This document shows, piece after piece, positions 28,706 to 53,332 of a stretch of 64,000 nucleotides of DNA. This DNA comes from JAWCQZ01 sp038869515 [NCBI: Halobacteria archaeon] (GTDB lineage: Archaea > Halobacteriota > Syntropharchaeia > JACQPP01): the NCBI GenBank assembly GCA_038869515.1, contig JAWCQZ010000006.1, forward strand, positions 14,112-78,111. The letters are read 5' to 3'. The stretch's first letter is position 1, and each line of letters starts with the position of its first letter. The translations under genes and the position numbers were made by a program. The notes below the pieces were generated by a model. It saw nothing but the letters and a program-made list of their open reading frames with translations, had not been told where the DNA came from and did not search any database.

Positions 28706-29998
28706 ATGGAGGCGTTCCTCGGGGCCCTCCTCTTCGGCGGAGGGGGCGCCCTCCTCGGCCTCGCGGCGGGCCTCCTCCCCGGACTCCACTCCAACACCAC
28801 GGCCGCCCTCCTCGCCTCCCTCGCTCCCGCCGCCGCGGCGGGCCTTCCCGCCCCCCCGGAGACCGCGGCGCTCTGGCTCGCCTGCGCCATCGTGGCGGCC
28901 GCTGTGACGGAGACCTTCGCCACGTTCATCCCGGCCACCTTCTTCGGCGCCCCCGACGAGGGGACCGCGCTGGTCACCCTGCCGGGCCACCGGATGCTCA
29001 TGGAGGGGCGGGGCTACGAGGCGGTCGCCCTCTCCGCCCTCGGCTCCCTCGGCGCTGTGGCCGTCGGCTTCGGACTCCTCATCCCCTTCCGGCTCCTGGT
29101 GGGCCCCCCGGTGGATGGATACGGAACCCTCCGGGCCGCCCTCCTCCCCCTCCTCGCGGGAATCACCGCCCTCCTCATTCTCACCGACCACGACGTCCTG
29201 CGGCCCCGGGGGCCGCTGTGGGCGGCGGCGGTATTCCTACTCAGCGGGGCGCTGGGGATGGTCGCCCTCGACCTCCCGACCCCGGGGCTCCTCGGGCCGT
29301 GGGGCTCGCCCCTCATGCCCCTGCTCCTGGGACTCTTCGGCCTCCCCGCCCTCCTCGCCTCCTCCGACCGGCCCCCGGAGGTCCCTCCCCAGAGCCTCGG
29401 GGAGCCCAGGATCTCCCCCGGGCCCGCCGCCGCTTCGGTCGCCTCGGGGACCCTCTGGGGCGCCCTCATGGGATTTCTCCCGGGCGTCACCTCGGCCCAG
29501 GCGACCGTCCTCGCGATGCTGGCGCGCCGCCGGAGGGAGCCCGAACAGGTCATCCTCACCCTGAGCGCGGTGAACACCGCCAACGCCCTCTTCGTCCTCG
29601 CCGCCTACTTCACCATCCTCCGCCCCCGGAGCGGCGCGGTCGTCTCCATCAGCCACTTCCTGCCCCCCGAGCCCTGGAGCGGCCTGGCGCCCCCCGCGCC
29701 ACTCGCGGGCCTCCTCGCGGCGGTGGTGGTGGCGTCGGTGGTGGGCTACTTCGCCGTCCGCTGGATGGGGCGGAACCTCGCGCCGCTGATGGCACGGGTC
29801 TCCTACCGGGCGCTGAGCCGGGGGCTGCTCGCCGCGCTCGTGCTGCTGACCCTCCTCCTCACCGGCCCCGTCGGCCTCGCCATCCTCGCCCCGGCCACCG
29901 CGGTCGGGATGCTCCCGCCGAGGGTGGGAGTCCGGAGGACCCACGCGATGGGTGTGCTCCTCCTGCCGGTGATGCTCGGGCTGGCGGGACTGCGCTAG
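28706..29998 (+). CDS. TctA-family (DUF112) membrane protein
   Basis: This 430-residue protein is hydrophobic throughout with about ten helices. The N-terminal GALLGLAAGLLPGLHSNTTAALLASL and the second-half WGALMGFLPGVTSAQATVLAML are the two inverted P-G repeats that define TctA-like permeases. In archaea a one-gene version is widespread with unknown substrate, unlike bacterial TctABC, which needs a binding protein. Its only close partner is the membrane-anchored OB-fold-like protein upstream. It overlaps the convergent membrane kinase gene by four bases. Confidence 0.75.
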   Translation: MEAFLGALLFGGGGALLGLAAGLLPGLHSNTTAALLASLAPAAAAGLPAPPETAALWLACAIVAAAVTETFATFIPATFFGAPDEGTALVTLPGHRMLMEGRGYEAVALSALGSLGAVAVGFGLLIPFRLLVGPPVDGYGTLRAALLPLLAGITALLILTDHDVLRPRGPLWAAAVFLLSGALGMVALDLPTPGLLGPWGSPLMPLLLGLFGLPALLASSDRPPEVPPQSLGEPRISPGPAAASVASGTLWGALMGFLPGVTSAQATVLAMLARRRREPEQVILTLSAVNTANALFVLAAYFTILRPRSGAVVSISHFLPPEPWSGLAPPAPLAGLLAAVVVASVVGYFAVRWMGRNLAPLMARVSYRALSRGLLAALVLLTLLLTGPVGLAILAPATAVGMLPPRVGVRRTHAMGVLLLPVMLGLAGLR

Positions 29999-31503
29999 AG
30001 GCGGAGCGCGATGGCGGCCGCAGCCCCGATCATCGTCCCGAAGAGGTTCGACTCCTCCTTCGAGAGGAACTTCAGCCGCGACGTAGCCCGGACCACGAGC
30101 CAGCCGCCGAAGCCGCCGACCATCGAGGCGGTGAAGGCGGGGAGTCCCATCCCGGAGGGGTTGAAGAGTCCGAGGAGGAGGAGCCCCGTCACCGCGCTCC
30201 CCGCGAGGGCGGCCCCCGCCCGCGTCGCGATGGAGCGGGAGGCGATGCGGCCGCTGGCGGTGTCGGCGGCGGCGGTGGCGATGGAGCCGGCGAAGAGGAG
30301 GGTGGCGAAGGCCGGCGAGGCGGGGTAGAGGACCGCGGCGAACGCCGGGACCGCCCCGTTCGCCACGATGGAGGAGGCGGAGCGCTTCATCTCGGTCCCC
30401 CTCAGGGCGACCGCGAAGCCGAAGAAGAGGAGGAGCGCGAGGAAGAAGGAGGGGCCTGACGCCTGGTAGACCAGCGCCCCGAAGAAGACCGCCGCCCCCG
30501 CTCCGAGGCCGTCGAGGAACCGCGTGAGGTAGGCCGCCCCCGCCGCGCCGAGGAGGATCGGCATGATGACGAACCAGAACTGGGGGCTCGGGTTGAGGAG
30601 GGGGGCGTCGGCGCCGCTCACCAGGACCATCGCGGAGATGGTCGGCAGGATGAGGTTGTCCCCGATGCGGAGCGGCAGCGACTCGAAGAGCGCCGCGCTC
30701 ATCGCGACCATCAGCGCGAGGAGGGGGTGGATGCGCTCTTCCTCGGGGAAGAACAGGTTCAGGAGGAGGACCGAGTAGAAGGCGGCGAGGACGAAGGCGA
30801 TCGAGCCCTCCTTGGTCTTCTGCGGGTTGTGGGACCAGTGGCGCTTCCCGATGAGCCGCCCGACCAGGGCCGCGGCGGGGTCGGCGTAGGTGAGGACCGC
30901 GATGGAGACGGCGGCGACGAGGGGCGGGACCATGAGCGCCACCACCAGCGCCGCGCTCAGGAAGAAGAGCGGCGCGAGGAGCCCCTCCGCCTCCTCCCCG
31001 CGCATGGCGGGGTTCATGATGCGCCGGAGGAATGTGGTGACCGGGTTGGGGTCGTCCAGGCGGCGGAGATATTCCGCGACCATCAGCAGGGCGATGACCA
31101 CCCCGAAGGCGAGGATGAAGAGGCTGGGGCTCAACAGGAGGAGGGCGAGCCCCGCGCTGCCGGAGGTGAGGTGGACGAAAGAGCGGTAGACCTGGTGGGG
31201 GACCCGGCCGCTGAGGAGGTAGGCCGCCACGAGCCCGCCGGCCAGGATCGCCCCCGCCACCCAGACGCCCGAGGGGACCTCGGCGAGGAGGAGGGCCCAT
31301 ACGCGGAAGGTCTCCGCGTTCCAGGCGAGGGCGTCCCCCCGGTAGACCAGCAGAAGCATGGCGAGGGGGGCGCCGGCGAGCCCGACCGCGAGGGAAGGGA
31401 TTGCCGGGAGCCGACGTCGGGCGAGGTGGGTGAAGGCGAGGACGAGCCCGCCGAGGCCGATGTCCACCCCGAGAGTCTTCAGGACGAGGGGGTCGATGGC
31501 CAT
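29995..31503 (-). CDS. Fused SEC59/VTE5-like and DUF92/VTE6-like membrane kinase (copy 1)
   Basis: The protein has 502 residues and about fourteen helices. The first half contains YADPAAALVGRLIGKRHWSH, NPQKTKEGSIAFVLAAF and FESLPLRIGDNLILPTIS, the CTP-dependent polyprenol/phytol kinase signature (SEC59, VTE5). The second half contains RSASSIVANGAVPAFAAVLY and GSIATAAADTASGRI, as in DUF92 (plant VTE6, phytyl-phosphate kinase). One chain could thus phosphorylate a prenol twice to the diphosphate. Substrate is inferred; geranylgeraniol salvage would feed archaeal lipid synthesis. It lies 22 bases after the second copy in the same operon. Confidence 0.7.
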   Translation of the reverse strand: MAIDPLVLKTLGVDIGLGGLVLAFTHLARRRLPAIPSLAVGLAGAPLAMLLLVYRGDALAWNAETFRVWALLLAEVPSGVWVAGAILAGGLVAAYLLSGRVPHQVYRSFVHLTSGSAGLALLLLSPSLFILAFGVVIALLMVAEYLRRLDDPNPVTTFLRRIMNPAMRGEEAEGLLAPLFFLSAALVVALMVPPLVAAVSIAVLTYADPAAALVGRLIGKRHWSHNPQKTKEGSIAFVLAAFYSVLLLNLFFPEEERIHPLLALMVAMSAALFESLPLRIGDNLILPTISAMVLVSGADAPLLNPSPQFWFVIMPILLGAAGAAYLTRFLDGLGAGAAVFFGALVYQASGPSFFLALLLFFGFAVALRGTEMKRSASSIVANGAVPAFAAVLYPASPAFATLLFAGSIATAAADTASGRIASRSIATRAGAALAGSAVTGLLLLGLFNPSGMGLPAFTASMVGGFGGWLVVRATSRLKFLSKEESNLFGTMIGAAAAIALRL

Positions 31504-31525
31504 GGCGCTGGTTGCTCCTCCGGCC

Positions 31526-33022
31526 TTAAAGGGCGGCGGCAGCGGCCGCCCCCGCCAGGGTCCCGAAGAGGTTGGACTCCTCCTTGGAGATGAAGGGGAG
31601 GCGGGAGGTCACGCGGACCACGACCCAGCCGCCGAAGCCGCCCCCGAGGGTCGCGACGAGGAGGAGGCTCCCCGGGCCCGCGGAGCCCAGGACCCCGTAG
31701 AGAAGGAGCCCCATGAGGCCCGCGCCGGCGGGGGCGGCGACCCACTGCCGGCGGGGGCCGGAGACCCGGGAGGCGGCGGTGTCCGCGGCGGCCGCGCCGA
31801 TGGAGCCGGCGAAGAGGAGCATCGCGAGGGCGGGGGCGGTGGGGTAGAGGACGGCGGCGAAAGCGGGGATGGCGCCGTTGGCGACGATGGAGGCGGCCGA
31901 CCGCTTCACCGAGGGGCCCCGGAGAGCGACGGCAAACCCGAAGAGGAGCAGGAGGGCGAAGAAGAAGGGGCTCCCCGAGGCCTGGTAGACGATGGCGCCG
32001 AAGAAGATGGCGGCGCCCGCCCCGAGGCCGTCGAGGAGCCGCGTCAGGTAGGCCGCCCCCCCGACGCCGAGGAGGAGGGGGAAGACAACGAGCCAGAAGT
32101 GGGGGCTCGGGCTGAGGAGGGTCGCCTCCGCGCCGCTGACGAGGACCATCCCCGCGATGGCGGGGAGGACGAGGTTGTCCCCGATGCGGAGGGGGAGCGA
32201 CTCGAAGAGCGCCGCGCTCATGGCGACGAGGAGGGCGAGGAGCGGGTGGATGCGCTGCTCCGGCGGGAAGAGGAGGCCGAGGAGCAGGAGGGCGTAGAAG
32301 GCGACCAGGACGAAGGCGATCGAGCCCTCCTTGGTCTTCTGCGGGTTGTGGGACCAGTGGCGCTTGCCGATCTTCCTCCCGACGAAGCCCGCCGCGGGGT
32401 CGGCGAAGGTGAGGACGGCGATGGAGGCGGCGGCCGGCAGGAGGGGGAGGAAGAGGGCGACGAGGAGCGAGGAGACGAGGAAGAAGAGGGAGGCGACGTA
32501 GCCCTGCGTCTCCCCCGCGCGGAGGGCGGGGTTGAGGATGCGCCGGAGGAACCTCGGAATGGGACCGGGGTCGTCGCTCCGCCGCAGGTACTCCGAGAGG
32601 CAGAAGAGGACGATGGCGACCCCGACGGCGAAGAGGAAGAGGTTGGCGCCGAGGAGGAGGATGAAGAGGAGGAGCGTTCCTGCGGTCATGTGCATCAGCG
32701 AGCGGTAGGTCGGCCCCGCGAGGCGGGTGCTGAGGAGGTAGGCGATGGAGAGGCCGCCCGCCAGGAGCCCGGCCGAAATCCCCACCCCGGCGGAGGCCTC
32801 GGCGAGGAGGAGGGAGGCCATGGCGCTCCCCTCTCCGGCCCACGCCGCGGGGTCCCCCCGGAAGAGTGTGAGAAGAATTGTGGCCGGGGCTGCGGCGAGC
32901 GAGACCGCCAGGGCGGGGGCGAGGGGGAGCCGTTTCCGGAGGAGGTGGAGGGTCCCCACCACGAGGGCTCCGAAGAGCAGGAGGACCGCAAGGGAGCGGA
33001 GGGTGAGAGGGTCCACCGCCAT
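31526..33022 (-). CDS. Fused SEC59/VTE5-like and DUF92/VTE6-like membrane kinase (copy 2)
   Basis: This 498-residue paralogue of the downstream gene has the same two-part layout: FADPAAGFVGRKIGKRHWSH with NPQKTKEGSIAFVLVAF, then FESLPLRIGDNLVLPAIA, then RSAASIVANGAIPAFAAVLY and GSIGAAAADTAASRV. The central blocks are almost identical between copies, while the N-terminal helices and the linker after the ADT motif differ, suggesting an old tandem duplication with conserved catalysis and changed substrate or partner. It is the first gene of the pair; a TATA box (TTGATAAATG, minus strand, 33045-33054) overlaps an inverted repeat. Confidence 0.7.
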   Translation of the reverse strand: MAVDPLTLRSLAVLLLFGALVVGTLHLLRKRLPLAPALAVSLAAAPATILLTLFRGDPAAWAGEGSAMASLLLAEASAGVGISAGLLAGGLSIAYLLSTRLAGPTYRSLMHMTAGTLLLFILLLGANLFLFAVGVAIVLFCLSEYLRRSDDPGPIPRFLRRILNPALRAGETQGYVASLFFLVSSLLVALFLPLLPAAASIAVLTFADPAAGFVGRKIGKRHWSHNPQKTKEGSIAFVLVAFYALLLLGLLFPPEQRIHPLLALLVAMSAALFESLPLRIGDNLVLPAIAGMVLVSGAEATLLSPSPHFWLVVFPLLLGVGGAAYLTRLLDGLGAGAAIFFGAIVYQASGSPFFFALLLLFGFAVALRGPSVKRSAASIVANGAIPAFAAVLYPTAPALAMLLFAGSIGAAAADTAASRVSGPRRQWVAAPAGAGLMGLLLYGVLGSAGPGSLLLVATLGGGFGGWVVVRVTSRLPFISKEESNLFGTLAGAAAAAAL

Positions 33023-33104: not shown

Positions 33105-33464
33105 TCAGGGGGCCGGGGGGCCGAAGGTTTCGGCCACCAACTCCGCCCCCCGGGAGGCGATTTCGCCCCGGACCGCGACCCTCGCTCCGAGGGCGCGGGC
33201 GGACTCCAGGGCCGCAATGTCGGTGTGGCCGGTGAATGCGAGGACCGGGGTCGGACCCATCCCCTTCCGAAGCAGGGCGAGGAGGTCGAGGGCCCCGGGG
33301 GTCGAGAGGTCGAGGATGGCGCCCAGGGGCTCCCCCTTCAGCGCCTTCCGGACCTCCGCCTCGCCCCGCACCACGGCCACCGGGTAGCCCCGGCTCTCCA
33401 GGAGGGTCCGGAGGCGGGAGGACCAGAAGAGGTCGGAGATGATGAGGAGGAGCGGTTTCGTCAC
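33105..33464 (-). CDS. Atypical receiver-domain protein
   Basis: The 119-residue protein starts at a GTG that overlaps the mfnA stop codon (GTGA). It reads as a CheY-like alpha/beta fold: LLLIISDLFWSSRLRTLLESRGY, GAILDLSTPGALDLL with the phospho-acceptor Asp, and VLAFTGHTD with the switch Thr. The conserved lysine before the last helix is Arg (VAVRGE), and only one acidic residue precedes strand 1's end, so phosphorylation may be lost. No kinase is nearby. It could act as a regulatory or protein-interaction module. Confidence 0.6.
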   Translation of the reverse strand: MTKPLLLIISDLFWSSRLRTLLESRGYPVAVVRGEAEVRKALKGEPLGAILDLSTPGALDLLALLRKGMGPTPVLAFTGHTDIAALESARALGARVAVRGEIASRGAELVAETFGPPAP

Positions 33465-34576
33465 TCTTTCAGGACTCTGCGGTACTCCCTCAAAAACTCC
33501 CGCGCCACCCTGTCGGTCACGTGGGGCATCACCACCAGCCGGAGGCTCGGCGGCTTCGAGAGGGTGGAGACCGACCAGCCGCGCTTCCTCAAGCGGGCCA
33601 CCACCCGCTTCAGCCTCGGCACCGCGGCCACCACAATCGTCAGTTCGGGCTCCACCCTCGGCGGCGTCCCCGCCTCCTCCAGCCCCTCCCGCAGAAGCCG
33701 GGTCGTCCCCAGGCATCTCCGGGCGACCCTCCGGTACCCTTCCGGGCCGAGGCGGCTCCAGAGCGCCCACGCCGCAGCGGCGGGGCCGCCGCCCCTCGTC
33801 CCCACGAGGGTCGCTTGGCTCTTCGTCGGCAGATAGTCCACCGGAGTCTCGATCCGCCTGAGGTCGGCGGGGTCCCTGAAGAGCAGCGTCCCCGCCTGGA
33901 TCGGGACCATCCCGAACTTGTGGGGGTCGAGTCCGACCGAGGTGACGCCGGGGGCCCGGAAGTCGAAGGGCCTCCGGCCGTCGAGGAAGGGAAGGAGGAG
34001 CCCCCCGTAGGCGGCGTCCACGTGGAGGGGGAGGTTCCACTCCCGGGCGACCCTCCCGATTTCGGCGACCGGGTCCACCGCGCCGAACTCGGTGGTCCCC
34101 GCGACCGCCACCAGCCCGACGGTCTTGTCGCTCACCGCCGCCTCCATCGCCGCGGGGTCGGCGCGGAAGCGGGGGTCGAGCCGTGTCCGCCGCAGTTCGA
34201 GCCCCATGAGGCGCGCCGCCTTGTTGAAGGAGAGGTGGGCCGATGCGGGGAGGACTACGTTCCCGCCCCGGATTTCGGACCTCCGCGCCATGGCGGCGAC
34301 CGCCAGGAGGTTGCTCTCGGTCCCCCCGGTGGTGAAGGTCCCGGGGGCCCCCGGCTTGCCGAGGAGCCGCGCGTAAGCGGCGAGCACCTCCTGCTCCAGC
34401 CTCCGGGTCCCTGGGAAGAGGGCGTGGTCACCGAGGTTGGTCGCGAGGAAGAGGGAGTGGGCGCGGACCGCGACGGGATGGGGCGGGGTGCACATCGAGG
34501 AGAGGATGCGGCCCCAGGGGAGGTCCCGGGCCCGGGCGGCCTTCAGTTGCCGGAGCAGAGGGTCGGCCCGCGCCAT
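33461..34576 (-). CDS. mfnA: L-tyrosine/L-aspartate decarboxylase MfnA
   Basis: The protein has 371 residues from the ATG at 34576 (ATG at 34588 also possible). It has the archaeal MfnA landmarks ILSSMCTPPHPVAVRAH, NLGDHALFPGT, TTGGTESNLLAV, LHVDAAYGGLLLPF and the PLP lysine in VGLDPHKFGM. MfnA makes tyramine for methanofuran in methanogens and beta-alanine for coenzyme A in others; without methanogenesis genes in view the second role is likelier, but this is inference. A minus-strand CTTTATGG about 27 bases upstream would give a leaderless transcript. Confidence 0.9.
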   Translation of the reverse strand: MARADPLLRQLKAARARDLPWGRILSSMCTPPHPVAVRAHSLFLATNLGDHALFPGTRRLEQEVLAAYARLLGKPGAPGTFTTGGTESNLLAVAAMARRSEIRGGNVVLPASAHLSFNKAARLMGLELRRTRLDPRFRADPAAMEAAVSDKTVGLVAVAGTTEFGAVDPVAEIGRVAREWNLPLHVDAAYGGLLLPFLDGRRPFDFRAPGVTSVGLDPHKFGMVPIQAGTLLFRDPADLRRIETPVDYLPTKSQATLVGTRGGGPAAAAWALWSRLGPEGYRRVARRCLGTTRLLREGLEEAGTPPRVEPELTIVVAAVPRLKRVVARLRKRGWSVSTLSKPPSLRLVVMPHVTDRVAREFLREYRRVLKE

Positions 34577-34612
34577 CGGCCCTTTCATTTCCCCCGGACC
34601 ATAAAGGGTCCG

Positions 34613-36050: not shown

Positions 36051-36737
36051 ATGGCCCGCGACGGGTCGCCTCCCTGGAGGGGGTGGACCCACATCACCAA
36101 ACTCGACCCCGACCGGCCCATCGCCCCCGAGGCGGTGAAGGCGGTCGCCGAGGGGGGGACGAGCGCCGTCATGGTGTCGGGGACCCAGAACGTCACCTCG
36201 AAGAAAATCGCGCGCCTGGTGGAGTTGCTCCGGCCCTACGACCTGCCGAAGGTCCTGGAGCCGGTGGACGGCTCGATGGTGACCTACGACCCCTTCGATT
36301 ACGTCTTCGTCCCCACCGTGCTCAACAGCGGGAATCCCGCCTTCATCGTCGGCAAGCACGCGGCCTGGCTGAAGCGGGGCGAGGTCCGGTGGGAGCGGGT
36401 GGTCCCCGAGGCCTACCTGGTGCTGAACCCCGACTCCGCCGTGGGGCGTCTCACCCAGGCCAAGCCCCTCGACGCCGAGACGGCGGCGGCCTACGCGGCG
36501 GCGGCGGAGGGATACTTCAACTTCCCGGTCGTCTACATCGAGTGCTCCGGGACCTTCGGCAGCCCGGAGGTGGTGGAGGCGGTGAAGAGGCGGCTGAAGG
36601 GGGCCGCGCTCTTCTACGGCGGGGGCATCGACGGCGCGGAGAGGGCGAAGACGATGAAGCGGTGGGCCGACGCCGTCGTGGTGGGGAACGTCCTCTACGA
36701 GAAGGGGCTCGACGCCTACCTCGAGACCGTTGTCTGA
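36051..36737 (+). CDS. Geranylgeranylglyceryl phosphate synthase
   Basis: This 228-residue TIM-barrel protein has the PcrB/GGGPS landmarks THITKLDPD, SGTQNVTSKK, NSGNPAFIVGKHA, YIECSGTFG and the phosphate-binding LFYGGGIDGAERA. It makes the first ether bond of archaeal lipids from sn-glycerol 1-phosphate and geranylgeranyl diphosphate. Its presence confirms an archaeal membrane and gives context for the prenol kinase-like pair upstream. It sits one base after rpoL. Confidence 0.93.
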   Translation: MARDGSPPWRGWTHITKLDPDRPIAPEAVKAVAEGGTSAVMVSGTQNVTSKKIARLVELLRPYDLPKVLEPVDGSMVTYDPFDYVFVPTVLNSGNPAFIVGKHAAWLKRGEVRWERVVPEAYLVLNPDSAVGRLTQAKPLDAETAAAYAAAAEGYFNFPVVYIECSGTFGSPEVVEAVKRRLKGAALFYGGGIDGAERAKTMKRWADAVVVGNVLYEKGLDAYLETVV

Positions 36738-52361: not shown

Positions 52362-53332
52362 CCTCCGACAAGGCGCGCGACCGCAAGAAGAAGACCTACG
52401 CCCTCGTCATGTTCGCGGTCATGTTCATGGGGATTTTCGTGGTCGCGGGGGTCGCCGGGCTCGAGGGGGTCATCCGCGCCATCACCGGGGGCAACCAGAG
52501 CGGCCCCCCGCTCGGCTCGGCTCCGACTCCGACCCCCGCCCCGCCGCCCCTCTTCCGGCGGAACCTCACCTCCTTCGCCGACGCCCTCTCCCTGACCCCG
52601 TCGGGCGCGGCGCGGGTCTCCTTCACCAGCGACCGGGGGCTCTTCGGGAGCGATTTCGGGGCCTTCGTCGGCCAGCGCCACACCGCCTGGACCCAAATCT
52701 ACGGGAGCCCCGTCTCGGCTGAGGTGCGCATCCTCCTCCCGCCCGAGGGGCTCCCCCTCTGGCTCCACGGCCTCTCGGGACCCGCCCCCCGGCCCCCGCC
52801 CGCCTTCACCTACAGGAACGCCACCCTCATCGAGTTCTTCCCGGGGCAGCAGCCCTGGCTCGGCATCGCCACCAACCTCCAGCCCCTCGTGGCCGGGGTC
52901 CGCCTCCCGGGGCCCCCCGCGCCCCCCTACATCGCCGGGCTCGACCCGGTCCTCGACGTCCTCGAGAACGGCTCCCGGGGGAGCGCCCTCGACCGCTTCG
53001 GCGACCTCGCCCGCCGCCTGCCCCCGGAGGCGCGCTTCGCCGGGGCTGCGGCCTCGCCCATCCAGGGGTGGGACAACCGCTCGGTATTCGGGGTCGTTTC
53101 CGAAGGGAACGAGAGCTACCGGCTCCAGGCCTACCTGGCGGGGGGTTCGCCCAACGAGGCGGGCCTCGAGGCCCTCCGGGCGAACGCCACGGCCGCCGGA
53201 ACCGGGCTCCTCTGGGGCCGGGAGGCGGGAGCCGCGGGCGGGGAAGAGGTGGTCCGGATCGAGGCGCGGGGGAACTGGAGCCAGGTGCGCGCCGTCCTCT
53301 CCTCCGGCGGGTTCCTCCTGCCGGGCGAGTGA
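52358..53332 (+). CDS. Membrane-anchored exported protein, unknown function
   Basis: The protein has 324 residues. A charged start (MTSDKARDRKKK) precedes one helix (ALVMFAVMFMGIFVVAGVAG), followed by a Pro/Thr linker (TPTPAPPP) and an external domain with several sequons (NLTSF, NATLIEF, NRSVF, NESY). It contains no enzyme motif I know. Its start overlaps pgk, so it is probably expressed with the glycolytic pair, though a functional link is not evident. DNA polymerase D small subunit begins 59 bases after its stop. Confidence 0.65.
   Translation: MTSDKARDRKKKTYALVMFAVMFMGIFVVAGVAGLEGVIRAITGGNQSGPPLGSAPTPTPAPPPLFRRNLTSFADALSLTPSGAARVSFTSDRGLFGSDFGAFVGQRHTAWTQIYGSPVSAEVRILLPPEGLPLWLHGLSGPAPRPPPAFTYRNATLIEFFPGQQPWLGIATNLQPLVAGVRLPGPPAPPYIAGLDPVLDVLENGSRGSALDRFGDLARRLPPEARFAGAAASPIQGWDNRSVFGVVSEGNESYRLQAYLAGGSPNEAGLEALRANATAAGTGLLWGREAGAAGGEEVVRIEARGNWSQVRAVLSSGGFLLPGE

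What the first reader, a model, noticed from the sequence alone, without database searches (positions are those of the whole stretch)
29995..33022. Tandem pair of giant membrane proteins that appear to join both prenol-kinase steps in one chain
Each protein has a SEC59/VTE5-like half (ADPAA..GR.IGKRHWSH, NPQKTKEGS, IGDNL) and a DUF92/VTE6-like half (R.A.SIVANG, AAADTA). In plants VTE5 and VTE6 phosphorylate phytol and then phytyl phosphate. A fused, duplicated version in an archaeon that also has GGGP synthase nearby suggests a salvage route for geranylgeraniol or another polyprenol into lipids. The two copies keep the motifs but differ elsewhere, hinting at two substrates. Fusion and duplication are seen directly; family names and chemistry are inferred.
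Basis: partly seen in the sequence, partly recalled or inferred. Interest (0 to 1): 0.72.

Follow-up and report, generated by a model that had tools for sequence, protein, structure and literature searches.

The report
Tandem fused prenol kinases, half disabled
Two neighbouring archaeal membrane proteins each join two lipid-kinase-like halves; the first half looks like a working kinase for long-chain lipid alcohols, while the second seems to have lost most of its expected active-site residues, and relatives show the two parts as separate genes and as a fusion with both halves largely intact.

Summary
Two tandem ORFs (498 and 502 aa, 64% identical, 22 bases apart) each carry a SEC59/CTP-transferase-like half and a DUF92-derived half. 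The claim that both kinase steps are joined here is only half right. The N-half keeps all 12 signature positions checked against standalone archaeal SEC59-like proteins. The C-half descends from DUF92, but of 32 columns invariant in 29 DUF92 domains P0001 keeps 12 and P0002 keeps 9, with three conserved loops shortened or replaced. Relatives suggest the history: one genome has the parts as adjacent genes (28 of 32 columns kept), another has a fused protein, 44% identical to P0002, keeping 24 of 32 without gaps. So a plausible two-step chain exists, but in the window it was duplicated and its second site apparently disabled. Conversely, 31 long DUF92 proteins sampled elsewhere lack the N-half signature. 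The SEC59-DUF92 fusion itself was described in 2015 (PMC5898192). Best reading: two CTP-dependent polyprenol kinases with a non-catalytic DUF92 half. Chemistry is inferred; the structure model was unusable and no genome of this organism is held.

The parts
31526..33022 (-). P0002, first gene of the pair, 498 aa: N-terminal stretch, SEC59-like half, DUF92-derived half
29995..31503 (-). P0001, second gene of the pair, 502 aa, same layout
32123..32725 (-). P0002 SEC59/CTP-transferase-like half, residues 100-300
   Evidence: PF01148 31.9 bits on a slightly longer excised piece
30604..31206 (-). P0001 SEC59/CTP-transferase-like half, residues 100-300
   Evidence: PF01148 26.7 bits on a slightly longer excised piece
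32324..32401 (-). P0002 kinase signature, residues D208 to G233 (DPAA..GRKIGKRHWSHNPQKTKEG)
30805..30882 (-). P0001 kinase signature, residues D208 to G233
31529..32122 (-). P0002 DUF92-derived half, residues 301-498, conserved loops missing
   Evidence: 18.3 bits against cut-off 27.5
29998..30603 (-). P0001 DUF92-derived half, residues 301-502, conserved loops missing
   Evidence: 26.4 bits against cut-off 27.5
31515..31521 (-). GGAGGAG, possible ribosome-binding site of P0001 in the 22-base gap
   Evidence: sequence printed; reading as a binding site is inference
36051..36737 (+).

Best explanation
P0002 and P0001 are tandem paralogues derived from a fused two-domain membrane enzyme: a SEC59/VTE5-like, CTP-dependent polyprenol kinase (residues 100-300) joined to a DUF92/VTE6-like prenyl-phosphate kinase (residues 301-end). 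In the window's lineage the DUF92 half lost its active site before the duplication and was kept as a structural, lipid-binding or partner-binding half. Each protein most likely phosphorylates a polyprenol (geranylgeraniol or a longer one) to its monophosphate at the N-half site and does not make the diphosphate itself. Shown here: fusion, duplication, intact N-half signature, missing DUF92 motifs in both copies, and relatives with separate genes and with a more intact fusion. Inferred: CTP as donor, a polyprenol as substrate, loss of catalysis in the C-half, and the order of events.
For: N-half: 12 of 12 checked signature positions kept in both copies; both excised N-halves pass PF01148; profile match 98.7% to standalone SEC59-like proteins. 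C-half: 12 and 9 of 32 invariant DUF92 columns kept, against 24 in the L085 fusion and 28 in the L087 gene. Whole-protein DUF92 scores 13.1 and 18.7 bits against 133.7 for L085 and 154.2 for L087. Trees of each half group the window pair with the L085 fusion (93/89 for N, 98/95 for C); the pair's shared stem is 2.84 in the C tree and 0.43 in the N tree. Since the duplication dN/dS is 0.40 in the C-half and 0.41 in the N-half, so the C-half still seems constrained. The L085 contig also holds UbiA and geranylgeranyl-reductase-like genes.
Against: The C-half is not random: Arg374, Asn382, Asp414, Thr415 and a late Asn remain, the P0001 C-half misses the DUF92 cut-off by only 1.1 bits, and dN/dS is the same in both halves, so some activity is possible. 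The DUF92 active site has no solved structure by sequence (no PDB match to A3), so which residues are catalytic is inferred from conservation. Even L085 lacks 8 of the 32 invariant columns. No usable model. The N-halves of L086 and L087 do not reach PF01148. The long C stem may be a long-branch or composition effect (flagged), and dS is probably underestimated at this GC.
Confidence: 0.5

Rival explanations
1. Truly bifunctional: both halves are active and each chain turns a prenol into its diphosphate; the C-half has a rebuilt active site.
For: C-half keeps Arg374, Asn382, Asp414, Thr415 and shows the same dN/dS as the N-half. A fused relative with more of the DUF92 residues exists.
Against: The glutamate of DTxASExG, the glycine-rich loop and the Asp of DSxxGA, invariant in the 29 reference domains and kept as columns in L085 and L087, are lost in both copies.
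Confidence: 0.12
2. Dolichol-type kinases: the pair phosphorylates long polyprenols or dolichols for protein glycosylation, not geranylgeraniol for membrane lipids.
For: The N-half is SEC59-like; PMC5898192 assigns archaeal dolichol kinase to the same superfamily and reports uppS as the conserved neighbour of DUF92 genes.
Against: No uppS or glycosylation gene was recognised among the window proteins scanned, which are not all of its genes. The L085 fusion lies on a contig with a UbiA prenyltransferase and a geranylgeranyl-reductase-like gene.
Confidence: 0.25
3. Not kinases but cytidylyltransferases of the CdsA type, making CDP-activated lipids.
For: Same Pfam family PF01148; the profile finds CdsA structures 4q2e/4q2g at E about 1e-4.
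Against: The CdsA signature ending in HGG..DR.D (recalled) does not occur in either protein, and there is no HGG.
Confidence: 0.08

Closest known systems
arCOG02245 / COG1836 / PF01940 (DUF92) proteins with an N-terminal SEC59-like domain, e.g. Mbar_A3310 (PMC5898192; passages and section 11 read)
   Same: Same order of domains, SEC59-like then DUF92, in one chain; in the 28 N-halves I compared, profile similarity to standalone SEC59-like proteins is 96.5%.
   Different: Those sampled here keep the DUF92 motifs and lack the SEC59 signature; the window pair keeps the SEC59 signature and lacks the DUF92 motifs. Mbar_A3310 itself was not examined.
   Same: 44% identical to P0002 over the full length, same layout, same SKEE.NL.GT ending.
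   Different: Keeps 24 of 32 invariant DUF92 columns without gaps, against 12 and 9 in the window; single copy of the fusion found, plus an unfused N-half relative.
Plant VTE5 and VTE6 (phytol kinase and phytyl-phosphate kinase)
   Same: VTE5-type kinases resemble dolichol kinase, and VTE6 belongs to COG1836 according to PMC9782597 (passages); both domain types occur in the window proteins.
   Different: Two separate proteins in plants; no plant sequence was compared here.
CdsA phosphatidate cytidylyltransferase (4q2e/4q2g)
   Same: Shared core motif D..A...G..FG......KSLEG.
   Different: CdsA-type signature absent.

Membership tests
SEC59/VTE5-like polyprenol kinase (PF01148 superfamily, COG0170) | PF01148 score over the curated cut-off | tested here: met
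   26.7 and 31.9 bits on excised N-halves, cut-off 24; not seen on the whole proteins
SEC59/VTE5-like polyprenol kinase (PF01148 superfamily, COG0170) | Signature residues D, G, G, K/R, E, G then E...DN as in standalone archaeal proteins | tested here: met
   12 of 12 positions in both copies; 11 standalone proteins compared
SEC59/VTE5-like polyprenol kinase (PF01148 superfamily, COG0170) | CTP-dependent phosphorylation of a polyprenol | not testable with these tools
   needs an assay
DUF92 / VTE6 / COG1836 (PF01940) | PF01940 score over the curated cut-off | tested here: not met
   13.1 and 18.7 bits whole, 26.4 and 18.3 excised, cut-off 27.5; TIGR00297 19 and 10.5 against 205.85
DUF92 / VTE6 / COG1836 (PF01940) | Homology by profile-profile comparison | tested here: met
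   97.5%, E 6.6e-12, 193 columns
DUF92 / VTE6 / COG1836 (PF01940) | Conserved motifs DT..[ST]E.G, glycine-rich loop, D[ST]..G[AS] | tested here: not met
   absent from both copies, also in loose form; present in L085 and L087 in loose form and strict form in 32 of 32 sampled proteins
CdsA cytidylyltransferase | Signature with HGG..DR.D (pattern recalled) | tested here: not met
   no match and no HGG in either protein

The most novel reading that the evidence does not exclude
After the fused enzyme lost its DUF92 active site, tandem duplication replaced it: the SEC59-type site of one copy phosphorylates the prenol and that of the other phosphorylates the prenyl phosphate, so two copies of one kinase fold do the work of VTE5 and VTE6, probably as a heteromer held together by the disabled DUF92 halves.
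Probability: 0.1. Interest if true: 0.75.

Novelty: new variant of a known kind. Interest (0 to 1): 0.5.

Why it matters
[quoted passage not shown] passages and reference entry seen); the passages I read name no genes for them. The fusion L085 and the adjacent gene pair in L087 put both candidate steps in one chain or one pair and can be assayed directly. The window pair offers a natural comparison in which the second site seems lost, and the long DUF92 proteins sampled here show the opposite loss. If right, the SEC59-DUF92 fusion was a bifunctional enzyme whose descendants became single-function by losing one half or the other.

Tried and rejected
Pattern scans with both copies found no relative in genome contigs or viral contigs, and tblastn of P0002 found none in plasmids. 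A uS11 scan gave 18 loci, of which seven gave genome handles. In the phylum of the Methanophagales genome G004 the two-row profile matched in 58 of 196 genomes, no listed match covering both halves. In the phylum of G002 and G003, 58 of 148 genomes matched in each of two nearly identical draws, with N-half type matches. Relatives of G006: 0 of 61 at E 1e-12, with no positive control. The 16-row N-half profile matched in 327 of 392 genomes; its match list is cut, and of six listed frames over 300 codons I fetched five, not G564. In the class of G416, 2 of 58 genomes match, G416 and G484.

Considered and dropped: assembly error (two copies 64% identical share the losses); foreign contig as the source of L085 (contig GC 0.67-0.68; of three other G416 contigs sampled for composition, two have GC 0.66 and 0.69 and one reads as N, and C101 has 0.64; this does not settle its taxonomy); placing the window in the G004 phylum (phosphoglycerate kinase at most 49% identical in 60 genomes; 44-47% in G484, G004 and G022 and no match in G416; phylum left open); operon link to GGGP synthase (other strand, 3.0 kb off).

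Results against a simple picture: my profiles show no clear SEC59-DUF92 kinship (SEC59 against DUF92 C-half 4.0%, DUF92 N-half against C-half 7.3%), whereas PMC5898192 reports one by HHpred. The 72.3% between the window's own halves is an artefact: my two pieces shared ten residues. Two of the 16 doubly gapped columns lie before the point where I cut the C-half. L086 lacks the Glu of the K.EG motif. The strict patterns do not match the L085 C-half and match L087 in two of four; looser ones match both. One strict pattern (KYxYK) is in 28 of 32 reference proteins and in neither L085 nor L087. PMC5898192 says two aspartates are conserved in the N-domain of Mbar_A3310; in my 28 N-halves the D208 column is Asp in 1 and E232 is kept in none, but Mbar_A3310 was not examined and the alignment near DN can shift by one.

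Rows dropped: L024, L025, L044 from the SEC59 set and 3 of 32 DUF92 proteins that my split rule missed, leaving 29 C-halves and 28 N-halves. One of the 32 (L035, 329 codons) is not a long protein. The 32 come mostly from the best-scoring rows, so they are not a random sample.

Full report
What is there. Two tandem genes on the minus strand encode P0002 (31526-33022, 498 aa) and P0001 (29995-31503, 502 aa), 64% identical along their length. The gap is 22 bases and holds GGAGGAG before the P0001 start. Both have coding-type composition. Identity is 0.84 in alignment columns 201-250, around the kinase motif, and 0.46 in columns 101-150 (printed before that script failed).

N-half. Residues 100-300 match standalone archaeal SEC59-like proteins (98.7%, E 2.5e-16), and both excised halves pass PF01148 (26.7 and 31.9 bits, cut-off 24), although the whole proteins do not. 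Twelve of 12 signature positions are kept in both copies. The N-half alignment finds only CdsA in the PDB, through the shared D..A...G..FG......KSLEG stretch, while the CdsA signature, recalled, is absent. A CTP-dependent polyprenol kinase is the likeliest function, by inference.

C-half. Residues 301-end align with DUF92 over 193 columns (97.5%, E 6.6e-12; controls at most 0.7%). Yet Pfam gives 13.1 and 18.7 bits for the whole proteins and 26.4 and 18.3 for the excised halves against a cut-off of 27.5. Of 32 columns invariant in 29 DUF92 domains, P0001 keeps 12 and P0002 9, with 10 and 11 gaps. Of 22 columns invariant when L085 and L087 are added, they keep 10 and 9. The missing pieces are three loops: the one with Y....K before the R..x..N stretch, the stretch from the Glu after DT to the glycine-rich loop, and the one with the Asp of DSxxGA. 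Arg374, Asn382, Asp414, Thr415 and a late Asn remain.

Relatives. In G416 (L085) one frame of 561 codons carries both halves; it is 44% identical to P0002, scores 133.7 bits for DUF92, passes PF01148 narrowly with its excised N-half (24.7 bits) and keeps 24 of the 32 columns without gaps. G416 also has an unfused relative of the N-half, L086, which lacks the Glu of K.EG. On the L085 contig lie UbiA (120.5 bits) and a geranylgeranyl-reductase-like gene (PF22578, 42.2 bits), 2.3 and 4.2 kb from the kinase frame. Only the two kinase genes of the window matched that contig at E 1e-10. In the class of G416 these are the only 2 of 58 genomes with a match at E 1e-20.

Trees. The N-half tree puts the window pair with the L085 fusion (93/89), then L086 and L087; the C-half tree puts it with the L085 fusion (98/95). 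The pair's shared stem is 2.84 in the C tree and 0.43 in the N tree, so the C-half seems to have changed fast before the duplication; unusual letter make-up and long branches make that length unsure. Since duplication dN/dS is 0.40 in the C-half and 0.41 in the N-half, with dS probably underestimated at this GC. The simplest history is adjacent genes, fusion, loss of the DUF92 site, duplication; the first two stages each rest on one genome.

Mirror case. DUF92 occurs in 193 of 196 genomes of the G004 phylum; in the listed rows, which are capped, many frames have 390-510 codons and a minority 250-315. The 28 N-halves compared are SEC59-like by profile (96.5%), but the SEC59 signature is absent from 32 of 32 sampled DUF92 proteins, 31 of them long, whose DUF92 motifs are kept. 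The fusion was described in 2015 for Mbar_A3310 (PMC5898192, passages and section 11), so the architecture is not new.

Verdict. For these two proteins the evidence favours one working kinase site per chain. The L085 fusion is the better candidate for the proposed two-step enzyme. In print: searches for DUF92/COG1836/TIGR00297 (30 of 35 papers listed), VTE5/VTE6 with fusion (25 of 37 listed), SEC59 dolichol kinase in archaea (4), arCOG02245 and related tags (2) and polyprenol kinase in archaea (4) listed no paper that I recognised as describing this pattern of loss; apart from passages of PMC5898192, PMC3223725, PMC11542857, PMC9782597, PMC10849223 and PMC9385802 I saw listings only.

Noticed in passing
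L025:1486-2502 (-), same protein L089:2013-3029 (-), genome G133: A PAP2-type phosphatase domain and a SEC59-like kinase domain in one 339-codon frame (PAP2 matched one member of A2 at 2.6e-10; assigned to this protein from its length and sequence).
   Followed up: partly
L095:4134-7210: Geranylgeranyl-reductase-like and UbiA prenyltransferase genes on the same contig as the fused kinase L085.
   Followed up: partly
33105-34588 (-): A 119-aa receiver-like protein (PF00072 21.7 bits, below cut-off) between a PLP-dependent decarboxylase and P0002 on the same strand.
   Followed up: no
28706-29998 (+): A TctA-family membrane protein (171.7 bits) whose 3' end overlaps the 3' end of P0001 by 4 bases, tail to tail.
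   Followed up: no
52445-52542 (+): ARAGORN reports a tRNA-Asp with anticodon atc, unusual for an archaeon and possibly a false call.
   Followed up: no
L031, L054, L045 and other long DUF92 proteins of the G004 phylum: Their N-halves look like SEC59-type domains that lost the signature, which sits uneasily with the 2015 statement that the N-domain aspartates of Mbar_A3310 are conserved.
   Followed up: partly
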